Assembly (NCBI GenBank): GCA_028281385.1
Contig: JANQJY010000049.1
Coordinates: 1 to 64,000 of the forward strand
DNA from: Rickettsiales bacterium
Lineage (GTDB): Bacteria > Pseudomonadota > Alphaproteobacteria > Rickettsiales > UBA3002
Reading direction: 5' to 3'
DNA: 64,000 bases
In this document: positions 960-15,233 of the stretch, one piece after another
Layout: every line of letters begins with the position of its first letter
Position numbering within the stretch: the first letter of the stretch is position 1
The notes under the pieces: model-generated
Databases searched by the model: none
Told to the model about the DNA's origin: nothing
Seen by the model: only the letters and a program-made list of their open reading frames with translations
Translations under genes and position numbers: made by a program

Positions 960-1937
960 ATGGCCAAAGAGCCGCAGACTCATAACAGTAAAGTCCTGAT
1001 TATCGGCTCAGGCTCTGCTGGCTGTACGGCGGCGATTTATGCTGCACGCGCCGGTCTTTCTCCGATTATGGTGCATGGCATGCAGCCGGGCGGTCAACTG
1101 ACTATTACCACCGAGGTCGAGAATTATCCCGGCTTTGCCGAAGTGATTCAGGGTCCGTGGTTGATGGAACAGATGGAAGCACAGGCTAAGAATGTCGGCA
1201 CAGAGATTATCCATGATGTCATTACATCGGTTGACCTATCAAAACGGCCTTTTGTCGCCAAAGGTGATTCGGGTGACAGCTATGTCGGTGATACACTGAT
1301 TATTGCCACCGGTGCCTCAGCGCGCTGGCTCGGACTTGACAGCGAAAGCAACTTCCAGAATTTCGGTGTCTCCGCCTGTGCCACCTGCGATGGGTTTTTC
1401 TTCAAGGATAAGGAAGTCGTGGTGATCGGCGGTGGCAACACTGCGGTCGAAGAAGCGCTGTTCATGGCCAATCTGGCTTCGAAAGTGACATTGATTCATC
1501 GTCGCGATTCCCTGCGTGCGGAAAAGATTCTGCAGGAGCGATTATTCAAGAATGACAAGATTTCCGTGTTATGGGATCATGTCGTTGAAGAATTTTTGGG
1601 TGAGAATGACCCGCCGAATCTGACCGGCGTGCGTGTGAAGCATGTTAAAACCGACGAGACATCTGAATTGAAAACCGACGGCGCCTTCGTCGCCATCGGT
1701 CATGACCCCAATAGCAATGTCTTCAAAAATACTGAGTTGGAAATGGATAAAGAGGGCTATCTTATCGTTACACCTGGTACAACCGCAACGAATATTCCCG
1801 GCGTTTATGCCGCTGGCGATATTCAAGATAAGATCTATCGCCAGGCTGTTACTGCCGCCGGTATGGGATGCATGGCCGCACTGGAGGCCGAAAAATTCCT
1901 TGCCGAACATGAGGATGCATCCAGCGCTGCGGCCTAA
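960..1937 (+). CDS. trxB: Thioredoxin-disulfide reductase
   Basis: An NADPH-dependent flavoprotein that reduces thioredoxin. The 325-residue protein opens with the FAD dinucleotide fold (GSGSAGCTAA, about 17-26), carries the redox-active CATC pair at about 140-143, then the NADPH fold (VIGGGNTAVEEA), and ends with the second FAD motif (GVYAAGDI). Length and domain order are normal for low-molecular-weight TrxB. It lies directly after the peroxiredoxin gene, which fits co-transcription for peroxide defence, and before a LysR regulator on the same strand. Confidence 0.96.
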   Translation: MAKEPQTHNSKVLIIGSGSAGCTAAIYAARAGLSPIMVHGMQPGGQLTITTEVENYPGFAEVIQGPWLMEQMEAQAKNVGTEIIHDVITSVDLSKRPFVAKGDSGDSYVGDTLIIATGASARWLGLDSESNFQNFGVSACATCDGFFFKDKEVVVIGGGNTAVEEALFMANLASKVTLIHRRDSLRAEKILQERLFKNDKISVLWDHVVEEFLGENDPPNLTGVRVKHVKTDETSELKTDGAFVAIGHDPNSNVFKNTELEMDKEGYLIVTPGTTATNIPGVYAAGDIQDKIYRQAVTAAGMGCMAALEAEKFLAEHEDASSAAA

Positions 1938-2013: not shown

Positions 2014-2925
2014 ATGATCGGCACGCAGAAGATGGATTGGGACAAACTCAGAACCTTTTATACCGTCGCACAATCAAAAAGCCTGACCAAGGCGGCTGAG
2101 TCCCTGTCGATCAGCCAGTCTGCCATCAGCCGTCAGATCAGCGCCGTGGAATCCGATGTCGGCGTTACCTTGTTCCACCGCCACGCACGCGGATTATTGC
2201 TGACCGAACAGGGCGAAATCCTGTTCCGCACGGTCGCAGAAGTAGTCAACAAGCTACAAACCACCCAGAGCATTCTCGCCGAAACGTCCGAACGCCCACG
2301 CGGGCCGTTTCATATTACCGCTCCGGCAGCGATCGGCACTATCTGGCTCACGACAGTGATGAAGGAATTCACCAGCCTGTATCCTGATATTGAAGTCACG
2401 CTTTTCTGCGAAGACGAAGAGAGAGACCTGTCGATGCGTGAAGCCGATGTCGCCATCCGGTTATACCCGTCCAAACATCCCGATTTGGTGCAGAAAAAAC
2501 TCGTCTCGCTGTCGAACAGCCTTTACGCATCGAATGATTACCTACATGAATACGGCACGCCGACCAGCATCGAAGCATTAAAAAGCCATCGAATTATCAG
2601 TTTCAGCAAATCATCTCAACTCCCCTTTCCGGAAGTAAACTGGCTGCTCAATCTGCCAGAAGTAAAGAAGCTGAAAATAAAACCAATCTTTCAAACCAAC
2701 AGCTTAAACAGCATGCGCCGCGCCGTAAAAACAGGTATCGGCATTGCTGCCCTGCCGGACTATCTGATGTATCGTGCCCGTCATATCAGCCGATTGCTGC
2801 CTGATTTAAAAGCGCCGGAAACAAATGCTTATTTCGTCTATCCCGTTGAGTTAAAGAATTCCCGTCGTATTGCCGTTTTTAAAAATTTCATCACACGCAA
2901 ATTGGCCGAATATAATTTTCATTGA
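2014..2925 (+). CDS. LysR-family transcriptional regulator
   Basis: A DNA-binding regulator with an N-terminal winged helix-turn-helix (residues about 10-65, with LSISQSAISRQISAVE as the recognition region) and a C-terminal LysR substrate-binding domain starting near residue 95. Length of 303 residues is typical. A second in-frame ATG at 2032, which begins MDWDKLRTF, may be the true start because related regulators often begin there. The effector is not evident. It follows trxB by about 75 bp on the same strand, and a link to redox or thioredoxin control is plausible but inferred only from position. Confidence 0.88.
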   Translation: MIGTQKMDWDKLRTFYTVAQSKSLTKAAESLSISQSAISRQISAVESDVGVTLFHRHARGLLLTEQGEILFRTVAEVVNKLQTTQSILAETSERPRGPFHITAPAAIGTIWLTTVMKEFTSLYPDIEVTLFCEDEERDLSMREADVAIRLYPSKHPDLVQKKLVSLSNSLYASNDYLHEYGTPTSIEALKSHRIISFSKSSQLPFPEVNWLLNLPEVKKLKIKPIFQTNSLNSMRRAVKTGIGIAALPDYLMYRARHISRLLPDLKAPETNAYFVYPVELKNSRRIAVFKNFITRKLAEYNFH

Positions 2926-3064
2926 AATACAAAGATTTGAGAGGTCTTCGCCAAGATATGCATTTTTTGCAATTCACATAGATGCATTTTTCCATTGAAA
3001 AGTTAATTTAAATTAATAATATGCCGCTTCCAAATCACTTAGTCATAGCATGATATGTTGATTT

Positions 3065-3193
3065 GGTGCCAGCCTTACCGGGCTGGCCCCCGGGCCGTTT
3101 CGGCCCATTACTGCCCGATAACGCAATGTTATCGTGGCGAGTAGCCTCCCTGTTAATCTCGCCGGGCTTTGTTAAAAAGTCCGGTATTTTTTT
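3065..3193 (+). ncRNA. Candidate structured small RNA with CCUCCC loop
   Basis: The 297-bp gap between the LysR gene and the convergent aatA holds a chain of perfect hairpins. These are 3068-3074 with 3081-3087 (GCCAGCC/GGCTGGC), 3092-3097 with 3101-3106 (GGGCCG/CGGCCC), 3116-3122 with 3128-3134 (CGATAAC/GTTATCG), and 3136-3141 with 3158-3163 (GGCGAG/CTCGCC). The last encloses a 16-nt loop that displays CCTCCC, the anti-Shine-Dalgarno motif seen in loops of several alphaproteobacterial sRNAs. A U-tract terminator follows on this strand only. No reading frame fits. It does not look like 6S, SRP or RNase P RNA to me. The 5' end and promoter are not fixed. Confidence 0.6.
3162..3193 (+). terminator. 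Rho-independent terminator of candidate sRNA
   Basis: A nine-pair stem (3162-3170 with 3176-3184, one G-U pair) has a 5-nt loop and is followed by TATTTTTTT. The T-run is on the plus strand, so it ends rightward transcription from the sRNA or the LysR gene, not the leftward aatA operon. Its first two bases overlap the last two of the CCUCCC hairpin. Confidence 0.7.
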
Positions 3194-3222: not shown

Positions 3223-4425
3223 TTAGCTTAACGCTGCGCAGGCTTCGGCAATACGCTCACAGGCTGTCTTAAGCGCTTCATCCGAGGTAGCATAGGAAAT
3301 GCGGAAAAAACCATCCATTCCAAAGGCGCTGCCGGCAACGGTACCAACCAACGCTTGTTCCAGCAGATAGCTGCTGAAGGCAATGCTGTCGGCAATGGTC
3401 TCTCCCAAGGGTGTTTTTTTGCCGATAAAGGCGGAACAATCGGGAAACACATAAAAAGCGCCATCCGGTTTGGCACAATGGATGCCGTCAATGGCATTCA
3501 GCTTTTCTATCACCAGATCCTGGCGTTTTTTGAATGCCGGAATCCAGTCCTTCAGAAAATCACGCGAACCGGTCAGCCCGGCCACCGCCGCTGCCTGCGA
3601 AATGGAACAGGCATTCGATGTGCTGTGCGACTGAATCGAACTGATAGCTTTAATCAGCCATTGCGGCCCAGCACCATAACCAATACGCCAGCCTGTCATG
3701 GAATAGGCTTTCGAGACGCCATTAACTGTCAGCGTTCTGTCATATAGCTCTGGCTCCACCTGCGCCGGAGTGACAAATTCAAACTCGTCATAGACCAGAT
3801 ATTCATAAATATCATCAGCCATGATCAGCACCTGCGGGTGTTGTTTCAACACATCGGTCAGTGCTTTCATTTCATCACATGTATAGCCGGCACCGGTCGG
3901 GTTGGAAGGTGAATTCAAAATTACCCAGCGGGTTTTTTCGGTGATAGCGGCTTCCAGCGCTTCCGGCTGCAGTTTAAATCCATTCTTCGCCGAAGATTCG
4001 ACAAAAACCGGTGTCCCTTCGGCAATGATCACCATATCCGGATAGGACACCCAGTAAGGCACCGGAATGATCACCTCATCACCGGGATTGACCGTTGCCA
4101 GCAACGCATTGAACAACACCTGTTTGGCACCATTGCCCACGACAATCTGTGATGGAGCATAATCCAGCCCGTTATCCGTCTTGAATTTGGCACAGACTGC
4201 CTCTTTCAGTTCCGGTGTACCTGCCGCTGCGGTATATTTGGTTTTACCATCGTGAATTGCCTTGATCGCCGCTTCCTTGATATGATCCGGCGTATCGAAA
4301 TCCGGCTCACCGGCAGCCAGCCCGATCACATCCTTTCCCGCAGCGCGCAATTCTGCCGCCTTGGCTGTTACCGCCATCGTCGGTGACGGTTTAATCGCGC
4401 TCAGGCGCTTTGCAATATCACTCAT
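3223..4425 (-). CDS. aatA: PLP-dependent aspartate aminotransferase (class I)
   Basis: Catalyses aspartate/2-oxoglutarate transamination; alphaproteobacterial members of this subgroup (AAT Ib) often also accept aromatic amino acids or prephenate. The 400-residue protein has the cofactor lysine in NGVSKAYSMTGWRIGY (about residue 237), the NSPSNPTG substrate-binding segment, and the terminal arginine region FFRISYA. The start overlaps the end of the FKBP-like gene by 8 bp, so it is probably the last gene of the rplY-pth-ychF-FKBP-aatA transcript. Substrate range cannot be settled from sequence alone. Confidence 0.92.
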   Translation of the reverse strand: MSDIAKRLSAIKPSPTMAVTAKAAELRAAGKDVIGLAAGEPDFDTPDHIKEAAIKAIHDGKTKYTAAAGTPELKEAVCAKFKTDNGLDYAPSQIVVGNGAKQVLFNALLATVNPGDEVIIPVPYWVSYPDMVIIAEGTPVFVESSAKNGFKLQPEALEAAITEKTRWVILNSPSNPTGAGYTCDEMKALTDVLKQHPQVLIMADDIYEYLVYDEFEFVTPAQVEPELYDRTLTVNGVSKAYSMTGWRIGYGAGPQWLIKAISSIQSHSTSNACSISQAAAVAGLTGSRDFLKDWIPAFKKRQDLVIEKLNAIDGIHCAKPDGAFYVFPDCSAFIGKKTPLGETIADSIAFSSYLLEQALVGTVAGSAFGMDGFFRISYATSDEALKTACERIAEACAALS

Positions 4426-5434
4426 CCAATCCTCCCGTTTCCGTGGTGATAGTTATGTCATTCTCCAGCATGTCTTCGATGACCTGATCCAGGAGGACAT
4501 CATCCACCTGTTCTTCTGTGTAGGGTATCCGCAGCAGTTCGACAATGGCAATTTCATCTCTGGGGAAAGGCAGGCCGGAATCTGTATCATTCTGATAACT
4601 CGGGGGGATCATCAATCGCCGGGCTTCCTGATATTTCATTCCGAATAATCCGCGGTCGATGCCATGACCGAATTCACCCTGACCAACCGTTGTGACAAAC
4701 GGTCCGCCTTGTACTTGCGAATCATAAAGCAACACTCCGGCGGCATTATAAAGGCGCAGGAGAAAAGCGATCTCATCCCCGCAACTGGCATGAACATGCA
4801 GACCCCGATATGGCTCGATACCTTTTACTATGGTTTCCGAAGAAAACCGCAATGTCTCATTGGCCCTCGGCGAAAGGTCTTTCAGTTCAAACAGGAATGG
4901 GACCATCGGTGCATCGACATCATCAAATTCCTTATGCGGCCAGACCAGTTTCGGCCCAAATGCAAGGAAGCGTGTGCCGCCCAGCTTCATGCCGCGCACT
5001 CCAAGTTGCCAGCTTTCACGTGTTGTCCCGTCGCCAATGATAAAGGTGATTGGTTCTTCCGGCGCCTCCGGCGACATTTGGTAATAGTCCTCAATTCCCT
5101 CTTCTCGCGCCCGCTTTTCCAAATAGGTGATTTTTACCGTGACCTGCTGACCGCACATGGCGATGTCACCAGTTCCTTCACGTATTTCTTCATAATCCAC
5201 ATCGGAAGCGAATTCCGGATCAATCACTCGATGCCAGCGGTCGATACTGAAAAACTCTTTTATTTCCGGATAGTTTTTAAGGCCGAGATCTTCTTCCTCT
5301 CCGGCGGGGGAAATACTATCCGGTGTTTTATCCTTTTCTTCCACATAACCGACAAATACCATGTAAAGAAGAAACAATCCTACCAGCCAACGTACCCAGT
5401 CCGGTGTATGTGGATCTTTTTTAAACAGTGCCAT
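4418..5434 (-). CDS. Membrane-anchored protein with two FKBP-like domains
   Basis: A 338-residue protein with one N-terminal membrane segment (about 14-31, WVRWLVGLFLLYMVFVGYV) followed by an acidic linker and a periplasmic part. Two segments resemble FKBP-type peptidyl-prolyl isomerase domains. The first, near 85-180, has QQVTVKITYL and GVRGMKLGGTRFLAF. The second, near 210-290, has DEIAFLLRLYNAAGVLLYDS and an HGIDRGLFGMKY segment. Many aromatic active-site residues of canonical FKBP are not conserved, so it may be a chaperone-like relative rather than an active isomerase. It lies 30 bp after ychF and overlaps aatA. Confidence 0.7.
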   Translation of the reverse strand: MALFKKDPHTPDWVRWLVGLFLLYMVFVGYVEEKDKTPDSISPAGEEEDLGLKNYPEIKEFFSIDRWHRVIDPEFASDVDYEEIREGTGDIAMCGQQVTVKITYLEKRAREEGIEDYYQMSPEAPEEPITFIIGDGTTRESWQLGVRGMKLGGTRFLAFGPKLVWPHKEFDDVDAPMVPFLFELKDLSPRANETLRFSSETIVKGIEPYRGLHVHASCGDEIAFLLRLYNAAGVLLYDSQVQGGPFVTTVGQGEFGHGIDRGLFGMKYQEARRLMIPPSYQNDTDSGLPFPRDEIAIVELLRIPYTEEQVDDVLLDQVIEDMLENDITITTETGGLDE

Positions 5435-14418: not shown

Positions 14419-15233
14419 CGTGATGTTATATCAGGGTTCCGAGCCGCAAATACAAGATAGCCTCCCACCAGCAGCATCGGCACGCACAGCAGTTGCCCCA
14501 TGGTCAACGGTCCGAGAATAAAACCCAGATGCGCATCCGGCTCGCGGAACAACTCGACAAAGGCACGCGATGCACCATAGCCGATGAGAAACACGCCGCT
14601 TAACAACCCTGGCTTTTGTGCGGCATGGGTGAATTTTATCAAACCGTATAATACTGTAAACAGCAACGCCCCTTCCAGCAACGCTTCATAGAGCTGACTC
14701 GGATGACGCGGCCGCCCGTCCGTATAAGGAAAGATCACCGCCCAGGGCACATCGCTTACCCGGCCGTACAGCTCGGCATTGATGAAATTGGCCATCCGCC
14801 CGAAAAATAGCCCGACCGGCGCAGCACAGGCCACTAAATCCATCAGTTTCAAATAGCCAACCTTCTGCCAGCGCGAAAAGACATAAAATGCTCCTATCAC
14901 TCCGAGCAGCCCGCCATGAAACGACATACCACCCTTCCAGATCGCAATAATATCCTGCGGATGCGCCAGATAATAATCAGGCTTGTAAAACAATACATAG
15001 CCGAGCCTGCCACCGATAATAATGCCGATCACCGCCCACATCATCATATCTTCCAGCTGCTTCGGCGTAAGCAACGGCTCGGATTGCCGTGCGTTAAGAT
15101 GTTTGATAAAAAAATAGCCCAGAACAATTCCGCTGATATAGGCCAGCGCATACCAGCGGATCGCCACCGGCCCGATATTGACAAGCACCGGGTCAATCTC
15201 CGGAAATACAATTGCTGAAACAGACAGCACCAT
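14415..15233 (-). CDS. lgt: Prolipoprotein diacylglyceryl transferase
   Basis: Inner-membrane enzyme that moves diacylglycerol from phosphatidylglycerol to the lipobox cysteine of prolipoproteins. The 272-residue protein has seven predicted membrane segments and the Lgt signature GRMANFINAELYGRVSD (about 140-157), plus the conserved Tyr/His region WKGGMSFHGGLLG and RHPSQLYEALLEG. Its 3' end overlaps midA. The MltA protein in this window carries a lipobox and is a likely substrate. Confidence 0.96.
   Translation of the reverse strand: MVLSVSAIVFPEIDPVLVNIGPVAIRWYALAYISGIVLGYFFIKHLNARQSEPLLTPKQLEDMMMWAVIGIIIGGRLGYVLFYKPDYYLAHPQDIIAIWKGGMSFHGGLLGVIGAFYVFSRWQKVGYLKLMDLVACAAPVGLFFGRMANFINAELYGRVSDVPWAVIFPYTDGRPRHPSQLYEALLEGALLFTVLYGLIKFTHAAQKPGLLSGVFLIGYGASRAFVELFREPDAHLGFILGPLTMGQLLCVPMLLVGGYLVFAARNPDITSR

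What the first reader, a model, noticed from the sequence alone, without database searches (positions are those of the whole stretch)
3065..3193. Candidate sRNA displaying an anti-Shine-Dalgarno CCUCCC loop
Four perfect stems in a row and a terminator fill the gap after the LysR gene. The last stem loop exposes CCTCCC, which matches ribosome-binding sites. Known: several alphaproteobacterial sRNAs use CCUCC loops to repress many mRNAs. The location next to the peroxiredoxin-trxB-LysR cluster invites a stress-response role, which is inference.
Basis: partly seen in the sequence, partly recalled or inferred. Interest (0 to 1): 0.62.

Follow-up and report, generated by a model that had tools for sequence, protein, structure and literature searches.

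The report
LysR-linked CCUCCC small RNA family
The gap after the LysR gene holds a real small-RNA gene: a divergent member of a large, apparently uncatalogued family found across Alphaproteobacteria beside the same regulator (VtlR/LsrB), in the place where Rhizobium-type bacteria carry the well-studied AbcR small RNAs.

Summary
Window 3029-3192 (+) is a small-RNA gene: 5' hairpin, three further hairpins, single-stranded GCCUCCCUGUU, terminator. Folding z = -5.7; compensatory changes in relatives. A covariance model (R2) built only from other orders finds it as the sole hit in its own genome (E = 9e-6). The family (core GAAGCCUCCCUGUU) occurs in 161 of 372 sampled alphaproteobacterial genomes; no copy scanned reached an Rfam 15 cut-off (nearest SorX, mmgR/suhB).

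It sits beside a trxB-linked LysR, reciprocal best hit of a Rhizobium VtlR/LsrB. Of 80 named LysR loci, 47 carry this RNA, 11 AbcR or AbcR-like RNA, 3 end too early, 19 neither; none both. A LysR-type operator precedes the RNA in most family loci, and AbcR1 at -71/-73. mmgR genes exist elsewhere in the same genomes, so this family is distinct.

Best reading: a VtlR-activated, probably Hfq-assisted RNA that represses mRNAs by pairing CCUCCCUG to ribosome-binding sites. Corrections: the gene starts about 36 nt earlier; the fourth stem is unsupported, CCUCCC being a linker; oxidative sensing lacks support because both LsrB redox cysteines are valine here. Transcription, regulation and targets are untested.

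The parts
3029..3192 (+). small-RNA gene (5' end inferred from promoter, 3' end from terminator)
3030..3066 (+).
   Evidence: fold of 3029-3192
3068..3087 (+). hairpin P1
   Evidence: helix with 5 compensatory pairs in relatives
3092..3106 (+). hairpin P2
3108..3144 (+). hairpin P3 directly before the core; in other orders replaced by ACGUCUCCCAGACGU
   Evidence: for other orders
3141..3155 (+). conserved core GTAGCCTCCCTGTTA with single-stranded anti-Shine-Dalgarno CCUCCCUG (3145-3152)
   Evidence: identical in 6 of 6 family genomes; class form GAAGCCTCCCTGTT; unpaired probability 0.97-1.0 over CUCCCU
3161..3192 (+). Rho-independent terminator: 10-bp hairpin and U run
   Evidence: conserved with compensatory changes
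2995..3022 (+). putative promoter TTGAAA (2995-3000), 16-nt spacer, TAATAT (3017-3022)
   Evidence: sequence; TTG and TAATAT-like blocks aligned in G001, G002, G007
3003..3016 (.). perfect palindrome TTAATTTAAATTAA (TTA-N8-TAA) in the promoter spacer, possible second LysR site
   Evidence: TTA-N8-TAA also at the aligned place in G001, G002, G007; function not tested
2956..2973 (.). degenerate T-N11-A LysR-type operator ATATGCATTTTTTGCAAT, centre about -64 from the inferred start
   Evidence: exact YATGC-N7-GCATR form at this place in most family loci
2032..2925 (+). LysR-type regulator, orthologue of VtlR/LsrB (listed from an upstream ATG at 2014)
   Evidence: reciprocal best hit with Rhizobium tubonense VtlR-type protein
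960..1937 (+). trxB, thioredoxin reductase, conserved neighbour of VtlR/LsrB
   Evidence: TIGR01292 above cut-off

Best explanation
It is an independently transcribed trans-acting small RNA of about 164 nt, a divergent member of a class-wide alphaproteobacterial family linked to the VtlR/LsrB regulator. Proposed mechanism: the VtlR-type LysR protein encoded next to it binds a T-N11-A operator about 65 bp upstream of the start and activates transcription. The RNA folds into a chain of hairpins ending in a terminator with a U tail, a usual Hfq landing site. The single-stranded linker GCCUCCCUGUU pairs with purine-rich ribosome-binding sites (ACAGGGAGGC) and blocks translation of a set of mRNAs. 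Shown by computation: gene anatomy, family, genomic linkage, family-level operator, orthology of the regulator, presence of Hfq. Inferred: transcription, direction of regulation, pairing mechanism, targets.
For: Fold z = -5.65 and compensatory changes. R2, built from 43 members of other orders, finds the window RNA as the only hit in its genome, E = 9e-6, and 161 of 372 class genomes. Invariant core next to the same LysR in all five family relatives, convergent with LysR in two, so an independent unit. 47 of 80 named trxB-LysR loci carry it, 11 carry AbcR or AbcR-like RNA instead. LysR-type operator in 32 of 45 members against 0.36 in shuffles, 59-fold enriched after LysR, and at -71/-73 of AbcR1 in three Rhizobiales loci. 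Reciprocal best hits for the regulator. Core unpaired. Hfq present. Published precedent: VtlR/LsrB activates abcR1 and AbcR represses through anti-Shine-Dalgarno seeds.
Against: No transcript data. The window's own operator is degenerate, and exact in only 5 of 13 relatives from its order; in two family genomes the RNA is convergent with LysR, where the downstream operator geometry cannot be the same. Target prediction is thin: one ribosome-binding-site match in the own genome. The 5' end is inferred.
Confidence: 0.72

Rival explanations
1. It is simply a member of the known alpha-r8 (MmgR/SisA-D) or SorX families, placed beside LysR in this and related lineages.
For: Rfam's nearest models are SorX (24.9 bits here, up to 44.1 in relatives) and mmgR/suhB (up to 36); the same CCUCCCU linker plus terminator design.
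Against: All scores of scanned copies are below the curated cut-offs. mmgR genes above cut-off exist at other places in genomes that also carry the LysR-linked RNA. Core is GCCUCCCUGUU, not UUUCCUCCCU, and the neighbour is LysR, not the FGase gene.
Confidence: 0.22
2. It is the sequence orthologue of AbcR (ar15), diverged beyond recognition by descent in the same place.
For: Same slot after trxB-vtlR and never both in one locus; same operator; P3 loop of class members shows CUCCCA, the Brucella AbcR M1 motif; weak in-register R2 matches to four AbcR 3' halves.
Against: No ar15 match at E <= 10 in the window; different hairpin order and no GUUCCC motif; the weak R2 matches (13.6-16.6 bits, E 0.05-0.4) may reflect only the terminator.
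Confidence: 0.25
3. It is only the structured 3' untranslated end and terminator of the LysR mRNA.
For: Same strand and about 100 bp between the LysR stop and the inferred start; SorX is described as 3'-UTR-derived (title).
Against: Convergent with LysR in two family genomes; conserved promoter-like block upstream; class-wide conserved core far beyond what a terminator needs; copies not next to LysR exist.
Confidence: 0.06

Closest known systems
AbcR1/AbcR2 (ar15, RF02345) with VtlR/LsrB in Rhizobiales
   Same: Same place after trxB-vtlR; same LysR orthologue; same T-N11-A operator; C-rich anti-Shine-Dalgarno seed; terminator
   Different: No sequence match to the ar15 model; one seed in the window RNA rather than two; different hairpin order; regulator lacks the redox cysteines
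alpha-r8 family: MmgR, SisA-D (suhB, RF00519)
   Same: Single-stranded CCUCCCU below a hairpin, then terminator; anti-Shine-Dalgarno repression shown for SisA
   Different: Core UUUCCUCCCU, usually beside the FGase gene; separate copies above cut-off coexist with this RNA in the same genomes
SorX (RF02784) of Rhodobacter sphaeroides
   Same: Best Rfam match; shares CCUCCCUGUU and the terminator
   Different: 24.9 bits against a cut-off of 46.6; described as a 3'-UTR-derived RNA, whereas this one has its own promoter-like block beside LysR
Cuckoo / CcsR / NfeR1 RNAs with CCUCCUCCC loops (own knowledge and PMC8844928)
   Same: C-rich anti-Shine-Dalgarno seeds in Alphaproteobacteria
   Different: Seed in hairpin loops and a longer CCUCCUCCC motif; here a linker CCUCCCUG

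Membership tests
Class-wide VtlR-linked family (model R2, this study) | significant score with a model built without the window's order | tested here: met
   32.0 bits, E = 9e-6 over the whole own genome, only hit
Class-wide VtlR-linked family (model R2, this study) | adjacent to the trxB-linked VtlR/LsrB-type LysR | tested here: met
Class-wide VtlR-linked family (model R2, this study) | LysR-type operator YATGC-N7-GCATR upstream | tested here: inconclusive
   degenerate copy 2956-2973 in the window; exact in 32 of 45 members
SorX (RF02784) | curated gathering score 46.6 bits | tested here: not met
   24.9 bits
alpha-r8 / mmgR (RF00519) | curated gathering score 41 bits | tested here: not met
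   no window match at E <= 10; relatives at most 36
alpha-r8 / mmgR (RF00519) | core UUUCCUCCCU in a single-stranded stretch | tested here: not met
   window has UAGCCUCCCUG; definition from PMC12559287
alpha-r8 / mmgR (RF00519) | neighbour gene FGase in most species | tested here: not met
   neighbours are LysR and an aspartate aminotransferase-type gene
AbcR (ar15, RF02345) | curated gathering score 40 bits | tested here: not met
   no match at E <= 10; the same model rings in Rhizobiales loci
AbcR (ar15, RF02345) | motifs M1 CUCCCA in a hairpin and M2 GUUCCC between hairpins | tested here: not met
   neither in the window RNA; M1-like loop only in other orders
AbcR (ar15, RF02345) | downstream of trxB-vtlR | tested here: met
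Anti-Shine-Dalgarno repressor RNAs (functional class) | repression of mRNAs by pairing of the C-rich seed to the ribosome-binding site | not testable with these tools
   needs reporter and compensatory-mutation assays
VtlR/LsrB redox regulator | redox cysteines C144 and C273 | tested here: not met
   valine at both places (cysteines from PMC11975290)

The most novel reading that the evidence does not exclude
The VtlR/LsrB regulator plus an adjacent, VtlR-controlled anti-Shine-Dalgarno small RNA is an ancestral module of Alphaproteobacteria. Regulator, operator and C-rich seed persist while the RNA backbone turns over: the GAAGCCUCCCUGUU family in most orders, AbcR in Rhizobiales, other C-rich hairpins elsewhere. 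AbcR would be one local form of a class-wide system.
Probability: 0.5. Interest if true: 0.75.

Novelty: new variant of a known kind. Interest (0 to 1): 0.62.

Why it matters
Anti-Shine-Dalgarno RNAs such as AbcR, MmgR/SisA and SorX are studied one lineage at a time. Here one LysR orthologue group, one operator and one genomic slot tie a very common family without an Rfam model (43% of sampled alphaproteobacterial genomes) to the AbcR/VtlR system of plant symbionts and pathogens. That gives a directly testable prediction in culturable genera (Azospirillum, Thalassospira, Magnetovibrio): VtlR drives this RNA. It also conflicts with a 2025 statement that LsrB is unique to Rhizobiales, and suggests that its thiol sensing is specific to that order.

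Tried and rejected
(1) Rfam ar15 searched over 385 class genomes gave nothing anywhere, including controls; not used as evidence of absence. AbcR was confirmed directly in fetched loci instead. (2) Other CCTCCCTG sites in the own genome as paralogues: the sites viewed, including L013 and L030, show no such RNA, and R2 finds one copy only. (3) First model R1, with a long AT-rich flank, gave many low-score hits in the order; most lack the core. (4) MAFFT failed to align stem 2 and the terminator across orders, so RNAalifold on A3 kept only stem 3; covariation was measured on the six-genome alignment A1 only. (5) Targets: ACAGGGAGG-N2-9-ATG gave one site in the own genome, before a gene I read as flgD-like, and unrelated genes in relatives; no claim made. 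(6) Weak R2 matches to AbcR 3' halves were not taken as proof of homology. (7) An unsuccessful try to name the window's order from proteins of other genomes of that order. (8) Transcript support in the A. brasilense sRNA paper: nothing found for this locus in the main text.

Full report
OBSERVATION. The gap between the LysR gene (stop at 2925) and the convergent aminotransferase gene (3223-4425, minus strand) was read and folded. The plus strand folds at -68.6 kcal/mol against a shuffled mean of -46.3 (z = -5.65, 0 of 200); the minus strand is weaker. Stems at 3068-3087, 3092-3106 and 3108-3144 and a terminator at 3161-3192 are there. In the favoured fold CCUCCC lies in a linker, 97-100% unpaired. 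Upstream is a promoter-like pair TTGAAA-16-TAATAT; a start near 3029 opens the RNA with one more 8-bp hairpin. The start site is inferred.

FAMILY-LEVEL CONSERVATION. The 181-bp region matched five other genomes of the same family over the core at E <= 0.01, besides two short hits without it. All five share GTAGCCTCCCTGTTA with hairpins before and a terminator after. In all five the same LysR gene is next door; in two (G001, G008) the RNA gene is convergent with LysR, so it is an independent unit. On the six-sequence alignment the structure has 87% standard pairs and 13 of 29 pairs with compensatory changes; 0 of 500 shuffles do as well, and slid controls fall to 28-46%. Caveat: the structure was derived from these sequences, which inflates the cells-paired measure.

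CLASS-WIDE FAMILY. A 15-mer search with one mismatch across 385 class genomes gave 41 positive genomes, dominated by the variant GAAGCCTCCCTGTTA. About a dozen of the inspected hits look like coding or chance matches; the rest have the same anatomy: hairpins, then ACGTCTCCCAGACGT or similar, then the core, then a strong terminator. A scan of the genome collection with an alignment of the LysR proteins gave 80 loci with record titles, among them Azospirillum, Thalassospira, Magnetovibrio, Reyranella, Kiloniella, Rhizobium and Mesorhizobium. From 43 of these, all outside the window's family as far as the tools tell, model R2 was built. R2 finds the window RNA at 32 bits, as the only hit in the whole 2.15-Mb genome, E = 9e-6, and hits 161 of 372 class genomes at E <= 0.001.

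GENOMIC SLOT. In the 80 loci, 47 have the core downstream of LysR (median 227 nt), 11 have AbcR or an AbcR-like RNA, 3 contigs end too early, and 19 have neither; none has both. The set was chosen by LysR similarity, not at random. Rfam confirms ar15 above cut-off in seven Rhizobiales-type loci. Some of the 19 still have a LysR-type operator and another C-rich hairpin, e.g. L148, L133 and L138. The Rhizobium tubonense VtlR-type protein has one match in the window's genome, the window LysR (46%), and the window LysR has its best match in that Rhizobium genome at the vtlR locus (283 bits, next 106). The order trxB-vtlR-abcR1-abcR2 in Agrobacterium, and the statement that trxB-vtlR is conserved in the class, are published (PMC7486931).

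OPERATOR. Between LysR and the RNA most loci hold YATGC-N7-GCATR, a T-N11-A dyad typical of LysR proteins: 32 of 45 members against a shuffled mean of 0.36; 42 sites in 27 kb after LysR against 16 in 616 kb elsewhere. The published VtlR box GCAT-N3-TG-N3-T reads as the right half plus flank and is exact in several loci (L104, L119, L163, L165). The same dyad lies at -71 to -73 of the first ar15 copy in L164, L177 and L175. The window has only a degenerate copy (2956-2973, centre about -64); five of 13 relatives from its order have an exact one. A general TGCA-N6-8-TGCA pattern is not enriched in the window. Regulation by VtlR is thus strong for the family and weaker for this genome.

RELATION TO KNOWN FAMILIES. 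Rfam 15 gives SorX at 24.9 bits for the window (cut-off 46.6) and up to 44.1 for relatives; mmgR/suhB up to 36 (cut-off 41). None of the copies scanned passes. Above-cut-off mmgR genes lie at other places in genomes that also have the R2 RNA, so the LysR-linked RNA is not their mmgR. Rfam puts ar15 and suhB in one clan; a deep common origin of these CCUCCC RNAs is possible and was not tested by a tree. Copies with core GACGCCTCCCTGTT in L228, L229, L231 and L234, found by R2 away from LysR, may be a second group.

MECHANISM. Repression through CCUCCC seeds at ribosome-binding sites is shown by experiment for SisA and AbcR. The window genome has Hfq. Predicted targets are thin: an 11-bp match before a gene I read as flgD-like (duplex -23 kcal/mol), plus two complements of 13-14 nt with no gene start next to them, which could be sponges like CrfA, or chance. 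The redox cysteines of LsrB (C144, C273) are Cys in the two Rhizobium sequences and Val in the window LysR and the other six aligned, so a peroxide signal cannot be assumed.

LITERATURE CHECK. The held library was searched for AbcR, VtlR, LsrB, SorX, mmgR and related terms. No description of a VtlR-linked RNA outside Rhizobiales was found, but key subscription papers (e.g. Sheehan 2015) are not held, so novelty is provisional. A 2025 paper calls LsrB unique to Rhizobiales on a small sample; the present orthology data disagree.

VERDICT. A real small-RNA gene, well conserved, part of a large and apparently uncatalogued family of a known kind; transcription, regulation and targets remain to be shown.

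Noticed in passing
window 2032-2925; alignment A4: The VtlR/LsrB orthologue here and in six other sequences from outside Rhizobium has valine where Agrobacterium LsrB has its redox cysteines C144 and C273; a 2025 paper calls LsrB unique to Rhizobiales, which the reciprocal best hits contradict.
   Followed up: partly
L017 (own genome C16, about 15143-15156) and L035 (own genome C94, about 4637-4649): 14-nt and 13-nt perfect complements of the RNA core (GATTAACAGGGAGG, ATTAACAGGGAGG) without an adjacent gene start; the first lies just before a terminator-like hairpin. Possible sponge RNAs like CrfA, or chance.
   Followed up: partly
L025/L274 (own genome C62:8590-8605, minus): AACAGGGAGGC at the ribosome-binding site of a gene read by eye as flgD-like: 11-bp complement to the core, the only such site in the own genome.
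   Followed up: partly
L133, L138, L148, L151, L130, L114 (after LysR): Loci without the core carry other C-rich hairpins or CCTCCC-plus-terminator elements in the same place, several with the operator: possibly further unrelated RNA types in the slot.
   Followed up: partly
L228, L229, L231, L234, L235: R2 also finds copies, some as close tandem pairs, with core GACGCCTCCCTGTT and no LysR nearby, possibly a second SorX-like family.
   Followed up: no
L117, L121, L174, L169, L178: Second or partial extra copies of the RNA near the same LysR gene.
   Followed up: no
window genome G000 and its order: The order contains many single-contig genomes of 0.9-1.6 Mb; two stretches sampled have 27-33% G+C against 50% in the window. 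This would fit Rickettsiales with the window from an environmental family, but it was not established; alpha-r8 RNAs are reported absent from Rickettsiales.
   Followed up: partly
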